Shown here piece by piece: positions 30,399-43,900 of a stretch of 64,000 bases of DNA (within the stretch, counting starts at the first letter, position 1; each line of letters starts with the position of its first letter). The stretch comes from Asterochloris sp. CNOR1. Taxonomy: Eukaryota; Chlorophyta; Trebouxiophyceae; Trebouxiales; Trebouxiaceae. Under the pieces are notes generated by a model. The model did no database searches and was not told the DNA's origin. It was given only the letters and a program-made list of their open reading frames with translations. The stretch spans positions 1,116,001 through 1,180,000 of the forward strand of contig OZ017749.1 in assembly GCA_963969365.1 (NCBI GenBank). Reading direction: 5' to 3'. A program made the position numbers and the translations under genes.

Positions 30399-30728
30399 GA
30401 TGAACCGTCAACAACTTGCTTTCAGTGCATATCAGCTCATAACAACGTTGCATCTGCTTGACAAGCACGTACCCGGTCTGTTGCTTTTGTCACCTGGACT
30501 GTCCCAGATCGTCTGCGTTTGCCCATGTCAATATTGTGTGCATTGTGACCTAAAGTAAGCCATGTAACACCCTGCGACAAGGCGTGAAACTTAAGGCCTG
30601 CTTCGCGGCAGAGCTCACTCATGGTGCTCATGCCCCACCTAGACCTCTTGAGTGATGATAGATTTGAAGTATGCAGAAAGAAATTCAATGAGCTTCCCTC
30701 CTGACCGGCACCCGGGTCACTGGCCACC

Positions 30729-30884
30729 ATGCCATTCCGCTGCCCTGCCTGCCACCACTTCAGTGACCAGCGGGGACACTTCGTGGCGCACATGAAGCCC
30801 CGCAAATTCAACTGCAAGGGGTGGGACCTCCTGACAGACGCTGAGAAAGACCCAGACAGCAACTGTATCACGAAGCAAGAATAG
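30729..30884 (+). pseudogene. Zinc-finger-like ORF or exon with in-frame TAG
   Basis: A 51-residue frame from the ATG at 30729 reads MPFRCPACHHFSDQRGHF, then VAHMKPRKFNCKGW. It has a Cys-x2-Cys plus His-x3-His pattern of the kind seen at the N-terminus of transposon and nuclear proteins. It stops at TAG 30882-30884, but the same frame continues as EEALAAAKAQK up to a good GTGTGT donor. An acceptor after CTCCAGCAG (near 30970) leads to a further open basic segment ending in a GTGAGC donor near 31060. It may therefore be the broken first exon of a mobile-element gene, or simply a short gene. Confidence 0.4.
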
Positions 30885-31084
30885 GAGGAGGCACTGGCTG
30901 CAGCAAAGGCGCAGAAGGTGTGTTGTGGAAGCTGGCATTCCGCTCACAGAGGGCCTTGGCTCCAGCAGGAAAGCGGGAGGAGGAAGTCCAGGCCAAGCCG
31001 AGTGCTCAGGCGTCAAGCAGCTGTGTCACAGCCATCACACATTCACTTCAAGGACATTGAGGTGAGCAGAGGATGTGACTTGTT

Positions 31085-31690
31085 ATATGGGCAGGTGAGT
31101 GCTCCAAAATCACCAAATTCCAGGGGAGGAGGGGCTCATGTCTTCCAGTGATTGTCCTGCTCAACACAGTCTGTGCTGAAGTAGATGAAGCTTCCGTGGC
31201 TGAGCATCACCAAAATCACCAAAATCCAGGGGACGGGGGCTCATGTGCTCATGTCCATCCCTTTTGCTCAACATCAAGTTGTGCTAGGACGAACAAAACT
31301 GGTCTGGGCAGGCAATTGTCACCATGAACACCAAAAAACAGAAGAGGAGGGCTCATGCGGGCGCGCCAATCCTTCTTGACTGACTTCAGTCTGTGCTGCA
31401 GCAGACAGAGCTGAACTCTGCAAGCACCACCACACTCACCAAAAGTCAGGGGAGGGGGACCTAATGTCAGGAGGGGTGGGGGCTCGTATGCCCTTGTTAT
31501 GTGCTCCTGTCCATCCCTTCTGCTTGACATGAATCTGTGCTACCCATCTTCCTGGCAAATACAGCTGGTCTTGACAGGTGAGCACCACCAAATTCACCAA
31601 AAGTCAAGGGGGGAGGGGCTTGCATGCGCGTGCCAGTCCTTTCTGCTCAGCATTAGTCTGTGCTCAGGCAGACAGAGCTGGCTGCTTTCT
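31085..31690 (+). repeat. Degenerate tandem array, ~100-160 bp units
   Basis: About five units share a core like caccaaa-t-caccaaaa followed by caggggaggggg and ctcatg, then a tail like cagtctgtgctg and cagacagagctg. Core starts lie near 31107, 31208, 31320, 31423 and 31583. The array ends just before the long ORF at 31705, so it may act as its 5' control region or as an element terminus. Confidence 0.7.
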
Positions 31691-31704
31691 TAGAGCAGGC
31701 TACG

Positions 31705-32871
31705 ATGAAGTCTAAGCAAGGCAGCAGCGAGAGGATCAATGGCAACAATGAACTCTTACTTAGAGCTTTTCAATCTCACTCCATAGGAAAGCAGGCTATG
31801 ATGAAGTCTAAGCCAGGCAGCGGCAAGAGGCAAGACCGCAACTTTGAGATTGTTGTCAACCACATCACTATCAATGAAGACCAGCTGCCTCAGGTCTCGC
31901 GGCAGAGCATGGCGGCTCTGAAGGATGTCTTTGGACACAACATCAAGAAGTGCTCAGGCACTCTTCACCACAAGCCAGGCAACGAGCATGTACATTTCCT
32001 GGTGATGTCTGAGGCTCCCAAGACCAACAGCGCTGTCAAAGCTCGTATTGTTAACTCCATGGCACTCATATTTGGCACAGAGATTGGGCTGGTGGAGGTC
32101 AAGATGTTCAATGTATTTGAAGCAGAGGCTGGACTGGCTCACGGCTTGAAGGGGCTTGGCGACTACAGGTCGCTGTACGTGAACAACAATGACCATCCAA
32201 ATCACCGCCCAAAGGATGCTGAGCACACGACAGTGGAGTTCATGTGCAGTGGAGAGTGGGAGATCTCGCATGGAGGCGCCAGAATTGGTTCTGGGCGGCA
32301 AGGCCCAGTGCAAGTGGCCACAGCAGCCATCAAGGCAGGAACTCCAGAATTTGAATGCAAGACGTATGAGGAATGCCAAAGTCTGCTGAAAGCTGCCGCA
32401 GAGAGTGTGGGTTGCACAGGGAGCGCCTTGCCGAGTGTGTTGGCCAAGAGCTCTTTTGGTACTGTGCCAATGCGTAAGGAAGGCGACCTGATTCGCAACC
32501 CTGCCTATGATGAGGACGAGTTCAAGGCCCTCCCAAAGGAGCAGCAGACTATCCAGCGGAAGCGCTCCATGAAGTACCTGCAAGGGCCCAGCGGATGCCT
32601 GCGAGAGGAACTGGTGGTTCGTCATGAATTATTAGAGGCGCACCCTCCTGACTTTTATCGATTCAGGCTGCTTGAGCCTGTCAGGAAGTTACAATCTGGA
32701 GGTGGTAACCTTTTAATTGCCAAGCTGAGGCAGCACTATGAGGAGGGATTCATCAATCTGTTTGGGAAGTACCCACCTCCTGGTTGGACGGCTGGCCGCG
32801 CCCCAGCAAGGGCATGTGTCAGTTACAACCTGCCGGCAGCTGTCATTGCTGATGTGATGAAGGCCAGATGA
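31705..32871 (+). CDS. Uninterrupted ORF with His-Val-His motif, unknown family
   Basis: A 388-residue reading frame without introns, in a window where nearly every gene is split. The start could be the ATG at 31705 or the one at 31798; the two are preceded by near-identical 40-bp sequences (31696-31736, 31790-31832). The protein has a basic N-terminus, then DRNFEIVVNHITINEDQLPQ, CSGTLHHKPGNEHVHFLVM (about residues 83-101), DYRSLYVNNNDHPNHRPKD and a C-terminal helical half ending LRQHYEEGFINLFGKYPPPG. The layout of a strand, then HVH, then a tyrosine some 55 residues later recalls HUH replication/relaxase proteins, but the tyrosine context (YRSLY) lacks the usual lysine, so I do not assign it. 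Its position beside a recombinase gene suggests a mobile-element protein. A TGTAA motif follows the stop. Confidence 0.72.
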   Translation: MKSKQGSSERINGNNELLLRAFQSHSIGKQAMMKSKPGSGKRQDRNFEIVVNHITINEDQLPQVSRQSMAALKDVFGHNIKKCSGTLHHKPGNEHVHFLVMSEAPKTNSAVKARIVNSMALIFGTEIGLVEVKMFNVFEAEAGLAHGLKGLGDYRSLYVNNNDHPNHRPKDAEHTTVEFMCSGEWEISHGGARIGSGRQGPVQVATAAIKAGTPEFECKTYEECQSLLKAAAESVGCTGSALPSVLAKSSFGTVPMRKEGDLIRNPAYDEDEFKALPKEQQTIQRKRSMKYLQGPSGCLREELVVRHELLEAHPPDFYRFRLLEPVRKLQSGGGNLLIAKLRQHYEEGFINLFGKYPPPGWTAGRAPARACVSYNLPAAVIADVMKAR

Positions 32872-33433
32872 TGTAAGCTTGTTTACAAGATTGTGAAAGT
32901 GTTTGAATCACCATGCCACAGCACAGGTGTGAAAGCGCACCCATGTACCCACACCAGATGACTTTGTAACAGATGCACAGATTGCGCAAGTGCAGCCCTT
33001 TTCAAGCCCCCAGGAGGTCCTCTTTGCCACCAGGGATTCAAGTGTAGCCAATGCCAGGTCCAAAAAGCCACCACATGTATTGGTGAGGCCAGCTCCCTCA
33101 GGTTGATATCTTCAAGTGTAGTTCAAGTGTAGTGGAACTTTGTTGTGCAATGGCTAGCCAGAAGTGGTTGATTGGCCCAGAGAAACGGGTTACGCGGGAA
33201 TGCAGATCTTCGATTCATGTAGACCAAGAGTGTTTCAAGTGTAGTCTGTCAGGGGGCAAGCCTGCAGGCTTGCCCCTCAAGATGACATGTGATTTTGTGG
33301 AGTGAAATGTCACTTTACGAGTAAAATGTTACACCACTCAGTAAAATATGACTTTCAACAGAGAAATGTGACCTGTGCAGGTAGATGGCGGTAGGAATTG
33401 TGAATGCAGATCAGCAAACAATCAAAGGCTTGC
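32872..33433. repeat. Palindrome and short-repeat cluster between convergent genes
   Basis: Between the ends of the HVH ORF and the recombinase gene lie four copies of tcaagtgtag (near 33040, 33112, 33123, 33234), a perfect 24-bp palindrome at 33253-33276 (ggggcaagcctg and its reverse complement), and four imperfect 19-20-bp repeats at about 33298-33375 of the form agtaaaatgttac/agtgaaatgtcac. Such a cluster could be a recombination site, an origin or a terminator. No gene is seen here. Confidence 0.65.
33253..33276. repeat. Perfect 24-bp palindrome
   Basis: The half-site ggggcaagcctg is followed directly by its exact reverse complement, with CCTGCAGG at the centre. In RNA it could form a 12-bp hairpin only if opened at the centre; as DNA it suits a dimeric binding protein. 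Confidence 0.85.
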
Positions 33434-36428
33434 TCAGCCGCTCTGCTTACGCTTGCCAAGTAGCTTGCAATCATTGCTGTACCTGCTGCATAGCTGCTGC
33501 AGTGAGCTGACTGTCCTGGTGGCGGGGAGGCGCCGACGTTCCATTTCTAAAGCCCCGACAACAGCAGCCATGGTGCTTCCCAAGGCAGCCATGCGGTTCC
33601 TGACCTCAGCAGCAAGGCCATTCTTGAATCTCGAGAAGGCCGTGCTGCTGGCCCTTGCATCCTTCTTGCTGCCATGCCACCTGCGGAGGTCTGAGGGCAC
33701 TGCTGAGATCTTGGAGAACGCCTCAAATGCTTCTGGGACTGTTTGAAATTCTGAGAGCTTCCAGACCTGCAGCTGACAAGGGGAAGTACAGTCTGACCAG
33801 TACACAGGCGCTCAAGCTGGAAGGCGATTGACTACACACCTGCTTCTCGAACAAAAAGGAGTCCCTCTCATCCAAGGCGCTCAGCGCACTGAGGGACTGA
33901 GGCGGCAGAGTAACGCCATAGCTGGCCTGTAAGCCAGAGGCACCCATGGGATGGGTTTGGCTGATGCTGGGGGCTGAACACCTGAAAGAGGCACCTGAGG
34001 CAGCATCACAACCGGGGCAAGAGGCATAGGCATGGCCTCCATTCCACCCAGCGTTTTGAAGAAGAAAGCCTGCGACATGGAAGGGCAAAGGTTCAGAGCA
34101 ATGATGTTTGACTACACCACCTAGGGGCCGCAGCGCTCACCGTTGGGTTGGTGAACAACAAATTCCTGTCGCTGAGAATCGCCTCAGCAGCAACGTGTTT
34201 GTCCCATGTCTCCTGCCGCAGCTGCTTGCCTACAGCGCTCTGCAGAAGGCGGCTGGCGGCTGGCGGGATGGTCGGAGCCACTGGTCCCCATATGAATCAA
34301 TTCTCAAGCTGGCATTCTGCACAAACACTTGCCGCAGGTGGTCGATGGCCCTCAAGGGCGCCAGCAAAGGATGTGCAGGGTGGCATCGCATGCCAGCTTG
34401 GCGCAGGAGCACTGTCAAGCCTGGGATAATGCGGTCCAGCACGTCCTCCTCAGTCTGCAGAAACAATTGGATCAGTCCCCCCCTCCCCAGGTTTTGGAGA
34501 TTTCTGTGAGAAGCACTGGCACTGCAGCGACCTTACCTTGAACTTAGCCTGACCCAAGCGATGATTCTCGTGCCAGTCCCGTCCCCAACCAGCCAGCCTG
34601 TGGGCTGTGTCCGGGTCAAAGATGCAATACAGGTCTGTGGTGTCGGACTCATGCCTGCAAAGGCAAAACAATGGTCAACCAGCTGGGGACAATATTGTTC
34701 AGGATGCACAGCATGGCCTGAGTTGCCTACCTCGCCGCCATTCTGATCTCCGCTTTGTTGATGCCCACGCTCTTAGCCGCCTCCACACCATGCTTCTTGA
34801 ATTTGTGGCTGACCTCCCCTTTAGCTGAGTACCCATCAAGCCTGCCACAGGGCACGCCTGCGGTGTTATAAGCCACAGATGTTACCGACAGCCGTGTCCA
34901 ACAGCTGCAGCATTGATGCACTGGCTCACCAGCAAGTTCAAAAGCCTGCCGAAGGTGGACGTTGAGAGTCTCCCCACTCATGGGCTGGTTCCCCTGCATG
35001 CTAGGGGCGGCAACAATGAACTTGGCCAGATCCTCAAGTTTGATGCCCCTGTGGAAGGTGGCGACAGCCAGGTCGGCAAGCGCTGCCTGAGGACAGATGC
35101 GATGGTCTCTGTACCTGTGGCAGAGGAGGCATAACAAGTGAAGACACACTGCAGCACACAGCTCAACTATGTCTGACAGCTTGAATGCGCATACCTGACA
35201 ACACCAGGAATATCCACCTGCCCAGGCTTCACAGTCTTCCCCTGCATGCTACCAAACAAGATTGCCACAGAGGGCACTGGGCCCACATTATCCTGCGTCC
35301 TCAGTGCCAGGCAGCTCCAGGGAAGTTTGCGCAGGTCATCAGAGCGGCTCAGTGTGGCTGGCATGAACGTCATTGCCATCCTCAGCAGATAGGTCCACTG
35401 CCATTGCTTCTGCTGGAAAGCTGCTTGCAGGGACTGGCGAAGCTGCTCTGCACTCAGTGCGGCATCCACCTGCAGATGCGAGCAACAAGCTGGGATCATA
35501 CACGCCATCATTCTGTTTGCACACCATGCTCTGACCAGGCCGGTACCCACCTGAGCTGCCACTTGAGCATTGAGGTTCTCAGCCTGCATCTCCCTGCCAC
35601 GTGCACGGAGCAAGTCCCTGACTGCTTGAATCTCCAGGGGTGCAGGTACATCTGAGGTGATGCGGCCCTCTGAGTACTGCTCTCTGCGGACTTCCTTGAG
35701 GTGGCATAGATAATCGCTGCATGCACCAGGCCAAGGGTTGGGAAGGGTGGGACATGAGCGCAGCTCAGACACAGCAGTGGAGGGGCCTCTCACCCCACGC
35801 TGCTGAATGAGTAGCGAGCACCATTCTGCTGCACTGCCACATCCACAAGCCACATCGAGAACTCAAGAATCTTGGCCTGAGACATGAGGTCGCCATCAGG
35901 GTAACGGTGCGCCTCCTGCTCACAGTACCTCTGCAGGACCACATGTGTGTGAGTGACATGGCCTTGGAAGCCTCAAGGGGGCCATAAGAACAGGAGTAAA
36001 GGCCATGCAGCGCCTACCCTCCAGAGCTTGGCAGCTGATTTTTCAGCCTGGACTGTGTTCTGTGGCTTAGCCGCACCATGACGGGCATTGATGAGCTGGG
36101 TGAGCTGTAGGATACGAGCTTCCTCCTCAGGAGTGTTAGGCATTGCTGCTGCCAAGCCAACTGCTGCGTCTGAGACTGGTGCTCCATTCTGCTGGCCCAA
36201 AGTCTCTAAACTGTGCACACCAGGGGCAGAGGCCAGCACTGGCTGGAGATCATCCACCACTCCAGACAGGTGTCTGCAGGCTTGATCAATGGCCGCTCTG
36301 AGGGAAGGAGGGCTGTCTGGGGAGCAGCTGCCATGTAGTTGTGCTATGTAGTCCCCAGCCAGCCCCAGTCTGATGACATGGTTGATGTAGCTGCTGTACT
36401 CAGCAGATGGCACCTGGTAGTGCTGCAT
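33434..36428 (-). CDS. Crypton-like tyrosine recombinase
   Basis: A multi-exon minus-strand gene. After an N-terminal exon (MQHYQVPSAEYSSYIN, ATG at 36428; an upstream ATG at 36656 is possible) come YCEQEAHRYPDGD and LCHLKEVRREQYSEGRIT. Then comes the recombinase core: LSRSDDLRKLPWSCLAL (35330, catalytic Arg), LFGSMQGKTVKPG (35250, the beta-hairpin Lys), YRDHRICPQAALADLA (35110), EVSHKFKKHGVEAAKSVGIN (34790, the H-x-x-R box, here H-x-x-K) and DLYCIFDPDTAHRLAGWGRD (34640, the nucleophilic Tyr). The order and wording of these boxes match Crypton-type recombinases of eukaryotic transposons. The C-terminal tail runs to the stop at 33434 through several exons rich in basic residues. Lys replaces the second catalytic Arg, so activity is uncertain. 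A decayed copy of its 5' end lies at 40497-40760. Confidence 0.8.
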
Positions 36429-36726
36429 GAAGGTCGATCTAGGGCACTTTGGCGCGCTAGGGCTTTTTGACCTAGTGCTTAGGTCGGAATGCAAACTTTT
36501 AGAAGGCCTGCCGGATTCACTTTCGCACCTAACAAGCCTCTGCCAGTCGGTAATTGTCACCACCAAGCACGATTCTGCCGTCAGCAAGCAGAACTGAGCA
36601 ACTCTACACCAGCTGTGCAGGTGCGCACATCCTGCTGACAGTGCCTTGTTCTGCATGGACCGCACCTAAGAGCGTAGAGGCTTCACCTACAGTTTAAAGT
36701 GTTCTCGATGCTGGTGGGCTGCAGGC
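36429..36726. promoter_or_regulatory. Divergent region between recombinase and effector-like gene
   Basis: The start of the recombinase gene (36428, or 36656) and that of the effector-like gene (36727) face away from each other over at most 298 bp, so they probably share this control region. It contains several ctagg/cctag half-sites near 36435-36490. The 5' part is duplicated near 40740. Confidence 0.45.
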
Positions 36727-39700
36727 ATGGATCCTCAGCAAGTTGAGGAGAAGTTGTCAAGAGAGGCGAAAGAGGCCTGGGAAGCATACCTGGCTGAGAA
36801 GGATCCAGCCAGATCAGATAAGCTCGAGAAGAGATGGAACAAAGCAGAGGGGAGGCTGGACAGCTTCCGAAACCAACAGGTGGCTGGAGGTGAGAATCCC
36901 AGCCTGGGCTGCAAGGTTGGACCTGCATGGCGTGCGGCAGCAGGTGGTGCACCTGGCGGGAGGCCCTGACCAGGGTCCTACCACCAGGCCCTCAAGCCTG
37001 GGCATGCAGGGGATATTTGCACTTTGTGTCCACCCCACCGTGGCTGCACAATTGAGCTGCACAGCCAGATATCGAGTGACACAAAACATTTCCAGCTGGA
37101 TGGGCAAATGAATGTCCTATGTGACTCAAGCAGGCAGACGGCAATCAAGGGCAATGCGTGCACAAGCCTCAACACATCTGCACCATGGTCTACTTCTTGC
37201 TCAGTGCTGCACCAGCATAGGTGTACCTGGGCCATCTAAGTGGCTTCAGGCAAAGGGGACAAAGCCCAAGTGAAGAGCAGCACCTGTGTACGCAGCTGGT
37301 ATGCGGTTGCCATTGCGCGCCTTACAACCATTGGGCCTGGCCATAAATCGCGCGTGATAGGTCTGAGCAAGTGGGTTGCAGCTTCTATGCTCCCTCACCT
37401 GTAGGGCATGGACCCATCTCCGTTTGACAAGAAAACATGGCCCCAAGTGCCCAAGGACTGCACTCATTGATGCAGTCTCTCGAGGCCGGAGCATGGGCAC
37501 TTGCATGGCTGTTTGCTGGCTGGTGCTGCACTTCAGCGTCATCAGTGGCATGCTGCAGGTGCTCTTGTGGAGGATGCCTCTGCCGCACGAGCAGAATGTC
37601 TGCTGGAGCCAATCTTGAAGTTGCCCAGCACGACTGACTTGCTGGACGCTGCTCTGCGTGCCAAGCCGCTCTGTACGATACCTGTTGATCAAGCCATCCT
37701 GGACTCGCTGACTGCCTCTGGTCGTCCAGATTTGAAGGCCGCGTTCACGCTGAGGGACCACTCATGCGACATCATCGCAACGGCCTTCTCCTACGTTATG
37801 GGGACATCTTTGGGCGCAGTCAGCAGCTTGCATTGCTGCATAGAAGACATATGAAGCTGCTGCTTACAACCTTGCCTGGCTGCTTTCATTGCCAGCCTAC
37901 ACCTTGCACCACCTTGGAGCATAATCAGGTGTGCCCTTTGCCTGCAGGGATCTGAAAGCATTGTGCCCTATGCCTGCAGGGATCTGAAAGCAATACAGTG
38001 GTTGAGGTAACAAACCTCCTGGTGGGGCTGCTTGTGCGAAACCTGGATGCCCTGCTGACTGGGGAGAAGAAGCTGGGGCTGAGTCACAAGCTTGATGAGG
38101 GTGAGGATGCAGGTGCCCATTGGTATTTTTGCCAACACGATTTACAGCCACTTTGCTGTCCTGCTCACAGCTTTGAGGTGTGCCATACCCCTGCTGCCTA
38201 CCTTTGCAGCTGATCGAGATAGTACAATGACTAGGCTGTCAGATGCTGGCCACAGCTTGCGACCAGATGGGCAGCTGCGCAGCAATACTGAGCGCCAGCT
38301 GCTGTTCAAGTGGGAGGTCAAGTCTACCAGTGGGTCGATGCTGGACGCAATGGAAGACCTCCGGGGTGAGTCAGGCAATCAAATGCAGGAGGCGCTTGTG
38401 CCGCCATCCATGGGAAGGCTACAGCAAGCCAGCTTGCATGTCACAGCTCTGCCATGTTGCTGACAAGTTGCTGCAATCGTGACATGCATCTCCACTGAAG
38501 AATGACACATTGCCAGCTCACATCCGTCTGCGTTCTGTGCCCGCAGCCAAGATGGGCCCATGGTCCCGCCTGTACTATGGGAGGCTGCCCTACCTCCTGG
38601 CAGCTGCAGCAGCGGGAGGCAAGCTACAGTTCTACGCCATCCTGCGCAACAGTCCCAGCAGCCCAATTCCAGTGTCGACGCAGTTGGACCTCGGCACCCC
38701 AGCAGGCCGCGCGCAGGCAGTGATTGCCACCATTAACCTGCACCGGCTGCTGCACGGCGTGCAGGCCTGCCTGCCCGAACATGTGCTGCCATTGGACTTT
38801 GTGGATGTGCGGGAGCACCGCCACGATGGCTACAAACGTACATTGTGAGCACACATGCAGATGGCCAGAAAGTGTCAGGCAAACCCTGAGGCCAGTAGCA
38901 TCATGCCTGCAACCTTGACAGATGTGTGCTTTTCCCGATCCGCAGAAGGCAGAGTAGGTGAAGCTGCATTTGGCAAATGACTGCCAAGCCCCTTCTGCTT
39001 GTTTATCAGTCTGCTGGAGCTGCTTTGCAAGAGTGGTGCAGCTGCAGGTGCTTCAGAAGCAACCTCACTGCCCACAAGACCATCTCGCCCTGGAGCAGGT
39101 TTTGCGCGAAGTGGGGCGCCGACGCTGACATTCTGGCACGCGTCTACCACCTGACGCGCGAGGGTGGCGGCCTGGTGCATGCTGTCAAAGGCCCACCCCG
39201 TGTGGTTCAGGACATGTATAGTGTGACCCTGGCGCCGGTGGGGCTGCAGCGGAGAGACGCAAAGCCCCGCAATGAGCAGCAGGCCCAGCATGCGGCGCAT
39301 TGCCTGCTTCACGGCTTAGCTGCCCTCCACAGAGTAAGCGTCCCAAGTTGCCATGCTGCCTTGCGTCCAGAGCCTTACGGGGCGGGGGCATTGGCTGGCC
39401 GCCACCCGCTCTGCACAACACCCACATCTTGGCTGCTGCAATTTGGTGAAATACTGCTGGAGTTCTTGCTTGAGGCAACACTGAGGAAAAATCCGTATCT
39501 TGGCTGCTGCAATTTGGTGAAATACCGCTGCAGTTTGTGCTTGAGGCAACGCGGCGCAAAATGTCACATGGAACAGGGTTTCAGAATTCTTGCATACTGA
39601 GCCCTGGCTGCCTTGCCTGTAGGCTGGGTTTGTGCACAGGGATCTACGCTGGGACAATGTGGCACGCACAGTCAATGAGGACAGCACAGTCAATGAGGAC

Positions 39701-40045
39701 AGCACAGCCGATGGGAACTGCTTCTTGTTGGACCTGGAGCTGTGTGGGGTGCCTGGAAAGCCTAAGTTTGGCAAGCTGGTCTCTTGGTCAGATGGCATAT
39801 TGGCAGATGGCATCCATTACACTGAGGCATCTGATGTCAGAGCACTAGGCATGATGCTACAAGCCTTGAATGTGGTGATCAGTGCTGATGGGTTGTCCTG
39901 CCTGGCAGACATGTGCAACGCAGAGAGCGGGCAGCATCACGCAACATGGCATGTTCCGCCAGCAGATCAAGCGCTGCAGCACGATTGGCTCCACTGCAGG
40001 GGTAACACTTGCAACTTTGCCTCATCTGAATCTAGCATCATGTAG
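36727..40045 (+). CDS. Nuclease-like plus kinase-like protein (Crinkler-type layout)
   Basis: The ATG at 36727 opens MDPQQVEEKLSREAKEAWEA, a charged helical exon. Later exons read LLDAALRAKPLCTIPVDQAI (37640), VTNLLVGLLVRNLDALLTGE (38005), then RQLLFKWEVKSTSGSMLDAM (38290), whose E-x-K after a hydrophobic strand resembles a PD-(D/E)xK nuclease site. Next come WSRLYYGRLPYLLAAAAAGG and LPLDFVDVREHRHDG (38560-38830), then a kinase-like part with AAHCLLHGLAALHR (39300), VHRDLRWDNVA (39636, the catalytic loop) and FLLDLELCG (39720, DLE in place of DFG), and SDVRALGMMLQALN. Nuclease-like plus kinase-like domains in one gene recall the Crinkler-RHS-type effectors proposed to derive from transposons. 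Family assignment is inference; exon borders are approximate. It sits between two copies of the recombinase 5' end. Confidence 0.65.
37931..37994 (+). repeat. 32-bp tandem copy of a splice acceptor
   Basis: Two direct copies, starting at 37931 and 37963, each read tgcctgcagggatctgaaag. Both contain a TGCAG acceptor, so two acceptors 32 bp apart compete for the same exon of the effector-like gene. Confidence 0.85.
39426..39567 (+). repeat. 71-bp tandem duplication in an intron
   Basis: Two copies, starting at 39426 and 39497, share atcttggctgctgcaatttg and gtgaaata followed by gcttgaggcaac. They differ at a few sites. The pair lies in the intron before the HRDLRWDN exon. Confidence 0.85.
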
Positions 40046-40496
40046 CAACATTTGTCTTTGGAACAGAACCCATTAGGGGATCTCCTTAGGTGTTGTCAAC
40101 ATTCACAGCAATTGCAGCAGGCTTGAGACCTGAAGTGATGGCTAATCATGAATGTGCACCCTGAGACCCTTCCTTTGGCTTGCTGCTACAGCCTTGGGCA
40201 TCCTGACTGGGCCTCATGCAGGGCGCTTCCCCTTTGAACTCACATGCTCAACCATACATCGTGTCTTCAATCACTAATGACACTCAGGCAAACAGCACCT
40301 CTGGGAAAAGGGATGCTGGGATCGACGCATCATAAGAATGAAGACATCTGCTGGGCTGACCAACTTGGCTGAACAGTTGACAGGTAAAAGCAAGCCCCTT
40401 GTGGCGCAGTTTGAACTCTGGTTTTTGGCCACCAGGGTCAAACCAGCCAGTCTGTTGGGAGAAAGTCAACAGTCAAGTCTGCCCTGCAAGGTCTCA
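40046..40496. other. Gene-free stretch 3' of the effector-like gene
   Basis: No exon with coding character seen. It contains TGTAG and TTAGG motifs and should hold the 3' UTR of the effector-like gene. Confidence 0.4.
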
Positions 40497-40760
40497 TTCA
40501 GCATCCACAACTCCAGACACATGTCTGCAGGTTTGATTGATGGCCGCTCTGAGGGAAATGGGGCTGTTTGAGGAGCAACTGGCACGCAGTTGTGCTGCTT
40601 CGCTCGCACAGCACAGGGCAAGCAGTGCGTACCACGTAGTCCTCAGCCGGCCCCAGGCTGATGACATGGTTGATATAGTTGCTCTACTCAGCAGATGGCA
40701 CTTGACCACTACCAAGTCTTGGTAGTGCACGAAGGTCGATCGATAGTTAGGTCGAGACTT
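40497..40760 (-). pseudogene. Decayed copy of the recombinase 5' end
   Basis: The minus strand reads SLRAAINQTCRHVSGVVD, matching SLRAAIDQACRHLSGVVD of the recombinase exon at about 36250-36330. DNA similarity continues through the start codon region to aaggtcgatc at 40731 (36431 in the full gene). The copy has lost the ATG (GTG instead), carries a 17-bp insertion that partly repeats its flank, and has a TAG near the start. It has the same orientation as the full gene, so the two form a direct repeat of about 250 bp flanking the effector-like gene. Confidence 0.75.
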
Positions 40761-40778
40761 AGGACTATAGATTGCAAG

Positions 40779-40889
40779 GTGTCACATGGCCTGTGATAAT
40801 ATGACCTGTTGCGGGGTGTCACATGGCCTGTGATAGTGTGACATGTTGCGGGGTGTCACATGGCCTGTGATAATATGACCTAAGGCTGG
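40779..40889 (+). repeat. Three 37-bp repeats with palindromic core
   Basis: Units start at 40779, 40816 and 40853 and read gtgtcacatggcctgtgata followed by atatgacctgttgcggg with few changes. Each contains the 15-bp inverted repeat TCACA-TGGCC-TGTGA. The array ends about 110 bp before the MFAP1 start codon, so it could be a binding-site cluster in that promoter or the edge of the mobile island. Confidence 0.88.
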
Positions 40890-40999: not shown

Positions 41000-43900
41000 A
41001 TGAGCTTTGCAGGCAGACCAGGGAACGGGGAGGTGGACAAAGGAAGAGTGGCAGCCACCCAGGTGAAGCGCTACAGGCCAGGTCAGGCACCAGACTGGAT
41101 CAAGGAGGAGGATGCAGAGGCATCAGCATCGGATGAGGAAATGAAGGAGGTAAGCGTCGCTGCGTTGTGCACATCTGCACCTGCCTCCAGACGCTCTTAA
41201 CAGGTACAGCGCACATACATTGCAGCTTTTGCTTGTAGCCACACTGAGCAAATGCACAGCCTCTCCAGGCTGTGTGGCAGGAGCATCCGTTCACCAACGC
41301 CCTCTGCTGCCTTGCAGGATGCCCTTGACAGGACGCAGATTGCTCCTCCTGTCATTGTCAAGGCAGCAGATGATCCCAGGTTGAGGCGACTTGCCAGGTA
41401 CATGCTTGATTCAACACACCTTGCCCTCTTACTAGCCATCTATCTGCCCCTCACCCCAATGCCACGATGGCTAGCATGCAGTGGCTTAGCCTTGCTCATC
41501 TTGTGAAGCTGCCCCGTCGTGGTCTGCTCTGATGACCTCTGTTGCACCATCTTTGCAATACACAATGCTGCCTGCCCTGCTGCAGGAAGCAGGATGCCTC
41601 ATCCTCAGACAGCGAGGGCACTGTCACAGGTCGCGGCAGAGCGGTAGCAGCTCCCCAGGTGAATGCCTGCAGAGCTTGAAAGCTGCAGGCTGCAAGACTG
41701 ACATTTGTCCACACAGGGCAGCCATCTGGGGTTGTGCCTTGAGGCCCTGCAGGCAGACTGGCAGTGCGCTGAGGCAGGGCCCCAGTCAAATCTCAGGCTG
41801 CTAAGTCCTGTGTCCCCAGAGCTGCTCTGCGGCCACGCAGCATCCCTGAGTGCGCATGTGTGGCCTCCTAACCTCAGCAGGTCCATATGCTGCCATTTGA
41901 GTGCTGCCGATGCAGCGCAAGGCTTGGCTGCGTGTGCTGCTGCTACAGACAGTGCTGCTGTCACGCAAGGTGTATTAGCAGGTGAGTGACGACTGCAGGT
42001 GGTCTCCAAGCGCCGACGAGAACGTGAGGAGGATGATAGCGAGGAGGTGTCCTCTGCAGAGGAGGCCAGCGATGCAGAGCCAGAGGTGGACCTAGACGAG
42101 CTGGAGAGAAAGCGGGCAGCAGTCAGGGAGAGGTGGGCCCGCCAGGCCGCGGCGGCAATGTCTCATTAGGATTCTGGCTGTGGAGGCATTTACTGCGAGC
42201 TTGAGTGTGAGCAGCATCAGCTGCCAGAATTGAAAGTAAATTGAGATGCACCATCCCCTGAATGTGGCTGCTGCCGGAGTCATTGCTCTCTGCCCTAGAT
42301 CAGCAGTTGCTTCCAACAACAGGGCTGGTCTTGGCCATCTCAGGTGCAGGATGCTCATGCAGGCACTGGCAGGCCAGCACCTGGGCGTGATGGGAGTTAG
42401 CCACTCGCATGAGGTGAAGCACTTTCTAACACAGGGTTGGCTCTGGTGCAGGCTCCAAGAGCGTGTGAAAAAGGAAGAGGAGGTCTTGGAACAGCAGGGG
42501 TTCCAGGAAGAGGAAGAAGAAGAGGTGATCACAAGAAGCAGCACATGGTATCCTGATGAATGACTCGACGCCCAAGGCAGTATTGCGTCTGCATGGCTTG
42601 TAACTGTGGAACCTCTTGCCTGGTGTTGAAGTGGGTGTTCTTGGCTGCCTGCTGCAGGAGGAGGAGTCGGAATATGAAACAGACAGTGAGGAGGAGCAGC
42701 TCGATCAACAGCGCCTCAAGCCCTTGTTTGTGAAAAGGGAGGAAAGGGAGGTGAGGGCCTGACACTATGAAGGCGCCCGCCAGCACTGTGCAGGCTTGAG
42801 CTGAATCACTTGAGGGCTGCCAAGCTGGATCAACCTCTGCTCCCTGAACCCTCCATCCAGTTTGCCTTCCCCTTTTCAAGCCGTGCGGGCAGGCGCCCAC
42901 AGCCTGTATAGGCAATTTTATGTCAGCTAACCTGCTAAGTGCTGTCACAGTGCTGCACCTGCTTGTCCGAGCTTCATGCTCACCCTGTGCAGACCATCGC
43001 TGAGCGCGAGAGGCAACAGGAAGAAATAGCAGCTCAGCAAGCCAAGGAAAAGGACAGGCTGGTGGAGCGGCAGGTGAGTCAGCTGCAGCACAAATGCACT
43101 GAGCTTGCTGGCTGGCATGATGGCCAGCGTGTTGTTGAAGGGGGCTGGAGGGAAGGTTCCAGCCAGCCTCTGCATTGGTGGGGCCCTACCCAAAGCTGTG
43201 CAGCTCGGTGCTGTTTGTTGCAAGTGATCGCTGCCACGCGCTCTTCCCTATTCAGCAGACCTGCGGCACTGCCAGCGCCACCTGGCCCAGGCCAATCTCA
43301 CTCAAGCAGGCAGGGCCTTCCGCCTCCACCAGTTGCTTGTGCTGGCTATAGGCAGAGACCCGTCAGATTGTGAAGGAGAGGCATGCCCTGGAGGAGGCCA
43401 TGGCCCAGGCTGCCAGCTTGGCTCCCAAGCACAATGAGGGCGACATAGACACTGAGGACGATGCAGACGACCCCGATGGTAAGCAAGCCGGCTGGTTTTC
43501 TCAAGAGTGCTGGAAGTGCTGCTGACTGGCATTTGCTCTGTAGGCTCAGCATGCAAACAGATGTCCCCACTTGCTTTCCTCTATATTGAGCAAGAGATTG
43601 GCAGTGATAGGTGCCCGCAAGGAGAAGGCTGACGTGTCTGCATGTTGTCCCAGCAAGTTGTCCAACTTCCTTAAAGTGTTTTGTTGCATGCAGACTGGCA
43701 CACTGCTCTCAAGCGCGACCGTGGCCTGCCAAGCTGCCCTGGTGCAGACAGCATCGGCTGGGAGGAGGTGCAGCTGGGGCCACCCCTGTCCACCTGAAAG
43801 CTACCCTGCCCACCTGAAAGCTACCCTGCCTTGTCCTCCACAGTTCACCTCCTGACTGGTATCCGCCCTCCCTGGTGCAGAGTACACCAGCTGGGAGACG

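What the first reader, a model, noticed from the sequence alone, without database searches (positions are those of the whole stretch)
30729..40889. Mobile island: recombinase, HVH protein, nuclease-kinase gene and repeat arrays
Ten kb hold a Crypton-like recombinase, a convergent intronless HVH ORF, a zinc-finger-like ORF, a divergent effector-like gene and repeat arrays at both edges. The genes around are conserved housekeeping genes (JmjC, MFAP1). I know of no described element with this combination; it could be a large eukaryotic transposon carrying cargo.
Basis: inference. Interest (0 to 1): 0.85.

Follow-up and report, generated by a model that had tools for sequence, protein, structure and literature searches.

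The report
Cargo-swapping algal transposon with two enzymes
A jumping DNA element in a probable lichen alga pairs a likely recombinase with a bacterial-relaxase-like protein and carries a toxin-like gene that has been swapped and flipped between copies, a combination not described in the papers we could search.

Summary
The island is real: one mobile element, window 30547-40882 (10.3 kb), between a JmjC gene and MFAP1. In the same 56.4-Mb genome (probably Asterochloris) the HVH ORF has 113 matching stretches; in 34 of 43 long copies the nearest recombinase exon within 10 kb is downstream and convergent. Left end, inner border and right-end 37-bp array each gave 40-43 matches (capped). In 7 of 8 elements read in full both ends carry GACCTA directly repeated, with an inverted arm inside (0 of 500 shuffles, 8 of 8).

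HVH is probably an HUH/MobL-type relaxase: the MobL profile matches three places in the genome, all HVH copies, all below cut-off. The recombinase is Crypton-like, weakly supported by sequence.

Between the inner border (AGGTC) and the array sits variable cargo: here a nuclease-kinase-like gene; elsewhere kinase, STAND-NTPase or trypsin-like genes. Cores 99.2-99.6% identical carry mostly unrelated cargo; two cargos 95.8% identical sit on cores 84.6% identical; one cargo is inverted at the AGGTC/GACCT sites.

Best reading: an integrative-mobilizable-element-like eukaryotic transposon with exchangeable Crinkler-type cargo. Excision, nicking and replication are inferred; no empty site was available.

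The parts
30547..40882 (+). whole element, from the left GACCTA to the right GACCTA
   Evidence: left-end matches begin at window 30543-30550 in 39 of 41 non-self rows; array matches end at 40879-40885 in 35 of 42 non-self rows, 6 end earlier and 1 later; termini
30547..30580 (+). left end: GACCTA-AAG-TAAGCCATGTAACACCCTGCGACA; the arm GCCATGTrACACCC is inverted relative to the right end
30729..30884 (+). 51-aa C2H2-like zinc-finger ORF (separate gene or first exon)
   Evidence: open in other copies
31097..31680 (.). degenerate 36- and 44-nt direct repeats, internal, upstream of HVH
31705..32871 (+). HVH protein, probable HUH/MobL-like relaxase; HVH motif and a conserved Y-x3-Y
   Evidence: model
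33252..33276 (.). GC-rich hairpin between the convergent gene ends, recognisable in the 10 copies aligned
33434..36428 (-). Crypton-like tyrosine recombinase gene, multi-exon; this copy shows a frame change near 34.25 kb against relatives
36469..36485 (.). inner recombination-type site GACCTAGTGCTTAGGTC, border of core and cargo
36486..40881 (+). variable cargo module
36727..36891 (+). coiled-coil-like first ORF of the cargo (header), read away from the recombinase gene
   Evidence: similar ORFs by eye in C18, C16b
37514..40042 (+). nuclease (REase-like)-kinase-like, Crinkler-type gene; nuclease and kinase read by motif in this copy
   Evidence: no Pfam match for this copy's exons; the kinase exon of cargo C18 scores Pkinase 9e-6
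40502..40760 (-). remnant of another element's inner border (first recombinase exon plus AGGTC)
40778..40881 (+). right-end array, 2.8 x 37 bp, ending ATATGACCT

Best explanation
A single eukaryotic DNA transposon built like a bacterial integrative mobilizable element. Shown: a conserved core of 5-6 kb (zinc finger, HUH/relaxase-like HVH protein, convergent recombinase), a second recombination-type border (AGGTC) inside the element, a variable effector-like cargo, and a right-end array; GACCTA direct repeats with inverted arms at the two ends; footprints of recombination at those sites (tandem and head-to-head ends, one inverted cargo, cargo-core discordance). Inferred: the tyrosine recombinase excises a circle by joining the two GACCTA sites and integrates it at GACCTA-like sites, including those of other copies; the inner AGGTC site lets cargo be flipped or exchanged; the HVH protein nicks the circle, perhaps at the conserved hairpin, so that rolling-circle copying raises copy number. 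The cargo (nuclease, kinase, NTPase, protease) would act as a conflict or addiction gene that favours keeping the element.
For: HVH-recombinase pairing in 34 of 43 long copies. Shared ends; GACCTA at both ends in 7 of 8 elements. Of 40 arrays, 32 lie on the inner-border side in element orientation, 3 on that side inverted, 5 have no recombinase match within 15 kb. End arms inverted in 8 of 8 elements, 0 of 500 shuffles each. Core-cargo discordance in 9 elements, 36 pairs: the 3 pairs with cores at 99.2-99.6% share 2-19% of cargo length; the one pair with 96% cargo coverage (95.8% identity) has cores 84.6% identical. Cargo inverted between two cores at C9, junctions at AGGTC/GACCT. Tandem and head-to-head ends. 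HVH as relaxase: MobL matches 14 of 31 members, best 1.8e-4; MobP2 10 of 31, best 0.012; MobL over the whole genome gave 3 matches at E<=10, all three HVH copies, best 0.0033. HVH non-synonymous to synonymous rate 0.33-0.92, uncorrected, lowest in the most distant pair. Effector hits in cargo zones 12 of 29 against 1.8% of the genome.
Against: Recombinase homology is weak: NDC10_II 3 of 10 members, best 0.016; no PHROGs or NCBIfam integrase; NDC10_II over the genome gave nothing, but rang in no control either; comparison with four E. coli tyrosine recombinases not significant; its second catalytic Arg appears to be Lys; the model failed (pLDDT 33). The relaxase matches I saw with a cut-off are below it; in the same scans unrelated families score almost as well as Rep_OBD and MobP2, and an unannotated PHROG scores 0.0016. 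Fold matches are weak and mixed with other ferredoxin-like folds. The conserved tyrosines lie in a low-confidence part of the model; one homolog has HVY instead of HVH and three left out of the alignment lack the Y-x3-Y stretch. Window cargo exons have no Pfam match; all cargo Pfam matches are below cut-off, and 7 of 10 cargo ORFs scanned had none. No empty site, circle or expression data. 9 of 43 HVH copies lack the convergent pair within 10 kb.
Confidence: 0.72

Rival explanations
1. Two different transposons (a Replitron-like HUH element and a Crypton) that sit in one another and were copied together, beside resident effector genes; no dedicated cargo module.
For: Both known kinds have short direct terminal repeats (passages); 9 of 43 long HVH copies lack a convergent downstream recombinase within 10 kb; 17 of 29 non-self effector hits lie outside element zones.
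Against: The pair keeps one orientation and spacing (18 of 34 pairs measure 2278-2378 bp) in copies with different flanks; the array is on the same side in 35 of the 35 arrays with a recombinase match within 15 kb. No end was seen between the two genes in the copies aligned.
Confidence: 0.12
2. A recombinase element in which HVH is a DNA-binding accessory protein without nuclease activity, and cargo exchange is ordinary homologous recombination between repeats.
For: Relaxase matches are weak and cover only the HUH region (residues 14-109 in the 4 of 10 members that matched); one homolog has HVY; homologous cores allow crossovers.
Against: Near-identical cores lose similarity right after the inner site, and the inverted cargo begins and ends at the pentamer, which points to site-specific exchange; Y-x3-Y is invariant in the 31 sequences of alignment A2.
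Confidence: 0.13
3. A decayed viral or virophage-like provirus.
For: Multi-gene element with a recombinase and a Rep-like protein.
Against: None of the ORFs that I scanned with Pfam matched a capsid family; IMG/VR scans with both proteins found no relative.
Confidence: 0.03

Closest known systems
Crypton transposons (Kojima and Jurka 2011, PMC3212892, passages read)
   Same: recombinase-encoding DNA element, 5-6-bp terminal direct repeats, no long terminal inverted repeats, circle proposed; some carry one extra gene (C48 peptidase)
   Different: HUH/relaxase-like gene, internal second site, right-end array, exchangeable effector cargo, inverted arms
Starships (search listing only)
   Same: eukaryotic tyrosine-recombinase element with cargo
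   Different: fungal and far larger; no HUH gene that I know of (recalled)
Replitrons (Craig 2023 not held; described in PMC10741241, passages read)
   Same: HUH endonuclease, green algae, short direct terminal repeats
   Different: 0.9-4 kb; no recombinase or cargo in the passage read; kinship of HVH to Replitron HUH not tested
Bacterial integrative mobilizable elements with MobL/MobP relaxases (recalled)
   Same: relaxase plus integrase plus cargo, att direct repeats
   Different: eukaryotic, intron-bearing, no conjugation partner known
Crinkler (CR/CRN) effectors (Amaro 2017, PMC5289972, passages read; Zhang 2016 not held)
   Same: REase-kinase, NTPase-REase and trypsin classes in modular proteins
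   Different: here carried as the exchangeable cargo of one defined element

Membership tests
Crypton | tyrosine recombinase with R-H-R-Y | tested here: inconclusive
   NDC10_II 3 of 10, best 0.016; R, H and Y in plausible positions by eye, second Arg reads Lys; no significant match to XerC/XerD/FimB/FimE
Crypton | 4-6-bp direct repeats at both ends, no long terminal inverted repeats | tested here: met
   GACCTA at both ends in 7 of 8 elements; C9b has AACCTA and GACATG
Helitron | HUH and helicase in one protein | tested here: not met
   HVH protein is about 360-390 aa; no helicase family in Pfam for 31 members, only a weak Rad17 P-loop match in 2 (0.034)
Replitron | HUH endonuclease kinship with Replitron HUH | not testable with these tools
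   Replitron paper not held; no Replitron sequence at hand
Replitron | length 0.9-4 kb (as in PMC10741241) | tested here: not met
   10.3 kb here; about 7.9 kb in L038
Starship | DUF3435-type captain (recalled) | tested here: inconclusive
   not among Pfam matches of 10 recombinase proteins at E<=5, but homology is weak altogether
HUH/MobL relaxase | HUH motif in a beta-alpha-beta-beta-alpha-beta fold with downstream Tyr | tested here: inconclusive
   profiles of two libraries agree, topology fits, scores below cut-off where shown; activity untested
DIRS-type retroelement | reverse transcriptase with a tyrosine recombinase | tested here: inconclusive
   no RT among Pfam matches of the core ORFs scanned; the RT I saw is a LINE-like ORF nested in one non-autonomous copy
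CR effectors | REase or NTPase coupled to kinase or other toxin domain behind a header | tested here: inconclusive
   Pkinase 9e-6, Trypsin_2 1.6e-4, nSTAND3 0.005 in three other cargos, all below cut-off; none in the window copy; REase read by motif only

The most novel reading that the evidence does not exclude
A new class of eukaryotic mobile element that joins a relaxase and a tyrosine recombinase, spreads as replicating circles, and carries an internal second att site that works as a cassette slot for toxin genes: a eukaryotic counterpart of integrative mobilizable elements with integron-like shuffling of Crinkler-type effectors, and a direct route by which that effector family diversified.
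Probability: 0.35. Interest if true: 0.93.

Novelty: new variant of a known kind. Interest (0 to 1): 0.82.

Why it matters
The Crypton paper lists the integration enzymes of eukaryotic transposons as separate types, tyrosine recombinase and rolling-circle initiator among them (PMC3212892, passage); one element with both kinds would be a new arrangement. Crinkler-type effectors have been proposed to stem from transposons (PMC5289972, passages); here is a concrete element with what looks like site-specific shuffling of such genes, in an alga where it can be tested by comparing strains.

Tried and rejected

Row selection. A2 holds the window protein and 30 of the 75 listed homologs. One search used the first 43 of 113 HVH rows and 83 of the 163 reported recombinase matches (not all 163 are listed); searches used 88 recombinase positions. 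One search used 40 of 43 array rows (3 second pieces of the same array dropped); of its 3 inverted arrays only the one at C9 was checked by sequence, and another standard array lies between the C16:1807902 one and its recombinase. One search merged 13 rows to 10 loci and 10 rows to 8. There the hit at C11:2296730 lies in a copy whose nuclease gene sits between HVH and recombinase and counts through a neighbouring recombinase match; two C9 hits belong to one locus, so hits are not all independent.

Paper searches: by their listings none describes an HUH plus tyrosine-recombinase eukaryotic element; this is limited to the held library. In the main texts of the two Asterochloris genome papers the words crinkler and recombinase do not occur (passages, and for PMC12542154 section 7); crypton, helitron and DIRS were searched only in the second and do not occur there.
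Full report
What is there. The window is C4:1116001-1180000 of a 56.4-Mb genome in 21 contigs. Homologs of the HVH and recombinase proteins that bear a source's name are all from Astpho2 (Asterochloris, recalled), beside unnamed ENA contigs, so the host is probably an Asterochloris lichen alga (inference). The finding's ten kilobases are one mobile element from 30547 to 40882. It lies between a JmjC/Cupin_8 gene on the minus strand and a gene recognised as MFAP1 by a recalled motif; the element ends about 120 bp before that gene's likely ATG at 41000.

Copies. The HVH ORF has 113 matching stretches in the genome, the longest recombinase ORF 163, the left end 42, the inner border 40 and the right array 43; the tool scores a limited number of candidates, so these are lower bounds. 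Among the first 43 HVH rows, 34 have the nearest recombinase exon within 10 kb downstream and convergent, 3 have it in another arrangement, 6 have none within 10 kb; 18 of the 34 measure 2278-2378 bp. Of 40 arrays, 35 have a recombinase match within 15 kb and all 35 lie on the inner-border side, 32 in element orientation and 3 inverted; 5 have no such match. Of the 3 inverted, one (C9) was checked by sequence.

Ends. The usual left end reads GACCTA-nnn-TAAGCCATGTAACACC, the usual right end GGTGTCACATGGCCTGTGATAATATGACCTA; in 7 of 8 elements both carry GACCTA, in C9b AACCTA and GACATG. The hexamer is thus a direct repeat, while the arm GCCATGTrACACCC is inverted between the two ends: in 8 of 8 elements the inverted match exceeded all 500 shuffles, while direct scores stayed near the shuffled mean. 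Similarity to other copies starts at 30543-30550 in 39 of 41 non-self rows and stops at 40879-40885 in 35 of 42. Ends join other ends: a left end directly after an array unit (C9:1465183), after part of a unit (C16a, C6n), and two left ends head to head across one unit (C5).

Core proteins. The HVH protein has its motif in the third strand of a predicted beta-alpha-beta-beta-alpha-beta unit (mean pLDDT 66) and a Tyr-x3-Tyr 57-61 residues later, invariant in the 31 sequences of A2, a spacing typical of two-tyrosine HUH enzymes (recalled); three truncated or rearranged homologs outside A2 lack that stretch. Pfam MobL relaxases match 14 of 31 members (best 1.8e-4) and Rep_OBD 3 of 31 (best 0.03), beside unrelated families at 0.034; NCBIfam MobP2 matches 10 of 31 (best 0.012) and MobP3 3 of 31. 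The MobL model run over the whole genome in six frames gave three matches at E<=10, all three inside HVH copies, best 0.0033, below the curated cut-off. The recombinase gene runs from about 36428 to 33434; four full-length predicted relatives have 705-748 aa. RSDDLRKL, HKFK and H-x8-Y stretches read like a Crypton recombinase by eye, and NDC10_II, whose yeast member is described as Crypton-derived (PMC3212892, passages), matches 3 of 10 members at best E 0.016. This is weak, and further tests were negative or uninformative. The window's copy shows a frame change near 34.25 kb against relatives (read), so it may not be autonomous. HVH copies compared with the window differ at a non-synonymous to synonymous rate of 0.33 (most distant, C9c) to 0.92 (C16b), uncorrected, so constraint shows best in distant pairs. 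A GC-rich hairpin between the convergent gene ends is recognisable in the 10 copies aligned.

Cargo. Between the inner site GACCTAGTGCTTAGGTC and the array lies a module of 2.0 to 4.4 kb in the eight elements read in full. In the window it holds a coiled-coil-like first ORF and a nuclease-kinase-like gene, read by motif; its exons have no Pfam match. Elsewhere cargos encode a kinase (Pkinase 9e-6, C18), a trypsin-like domain (1.6e-4, C5) and, in a non-autonomous copy, a STAND NTPase (0.005); these are below curated cut-offs, and 7 of the 10 cargo ORFs scanned matched nothing. Such domains are among those described for Crinkler-type effectors (PMC5289972, passages). Effector relatives fall in zones next to recombinase genes more often than chance (12 of 29 non-self hits against 1.8% of the genome); 17 of 29 lie elsewhere. 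A relative of the C18 cargo nuclease also occurs in Trebouxia (P0127, 36% identity).

Shuffling. Among nine elements (36 pairs), the cores of C4b, C16a and C9a are 99.2-99.6% identical over their whole length, while their cargos share 2-19% of length; conversely the cargos of C16b and C9c are 95.8% identical over 96% of length on cores 84.6% identical over 72%. The C9c cargo is moreover inverted: core 2 ends in AGGTC and is followed by the reversed array and cargo, and the far junction runs into the GACCTAAAG of the next core. Breaks at these pentamers are what a site-specific recombinase would leave; they were examined in the few copies fetched, not genome-wide.

Mechanism. Excision as a circle across GACCTA, integration at like sites, and inversion or exchange of cargo through the inner AGGTC site fit the footprints seen and need only the recombinase (inferred). 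The relaxase-like HVH protein would add replication or strand transfer of the circle (inferred, untested). Novelty: by their listings, the papers found describe no such combination, but the Replitron paper and the Crinkler-origin paper were not available, so I claim a new variant rather than a new kind.

Noticed in passing
C11:2297863, C6:2356933, C3:1159059: Three copies carry a nuclease gene between HVH and the recombinase, with a gap of about 6 kb between the two; two of the nuclease hits score identically, which suggests a recent duplication.
   Followed up: no
L040 (C6:3164200-3172100): Non-autonomous copy with left end, a nested LINE-like reverse transcriptase ORF of 896 aa, NTPase-type cargo, and its array joined to the reversed inner border of another core.
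   Followed up: partly
window 37942-38088: 147 bp of the effector gene region are 100% identical to C10:750843-750989, although the best other relative is 74% identical.
   Followed up: no
window 37113-37327: A separate short repeat (86-89% identical at C7, C12, C6) lies inside the cargo, upstream of the effector gene.
   Followed up: no
P0073, P0074: Astpho2 gene models join HVH-like parts to ankyrin-type repeats (precomputed Pfam) or to an ATPase domain; fusion or mis-annotation is open.
   Followed up: no
window 39417-39558, 39666-39707, 37930-37992: Short tandem duplications inside the effector gene region.
   Followed up: no
L041/L042 (C5:3192900-3204100): Two stretches of about 1.69 kb in inverted orientation, 98.7% identical, each spanning a head-to-head pair of left ends.
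   Followed up: partly
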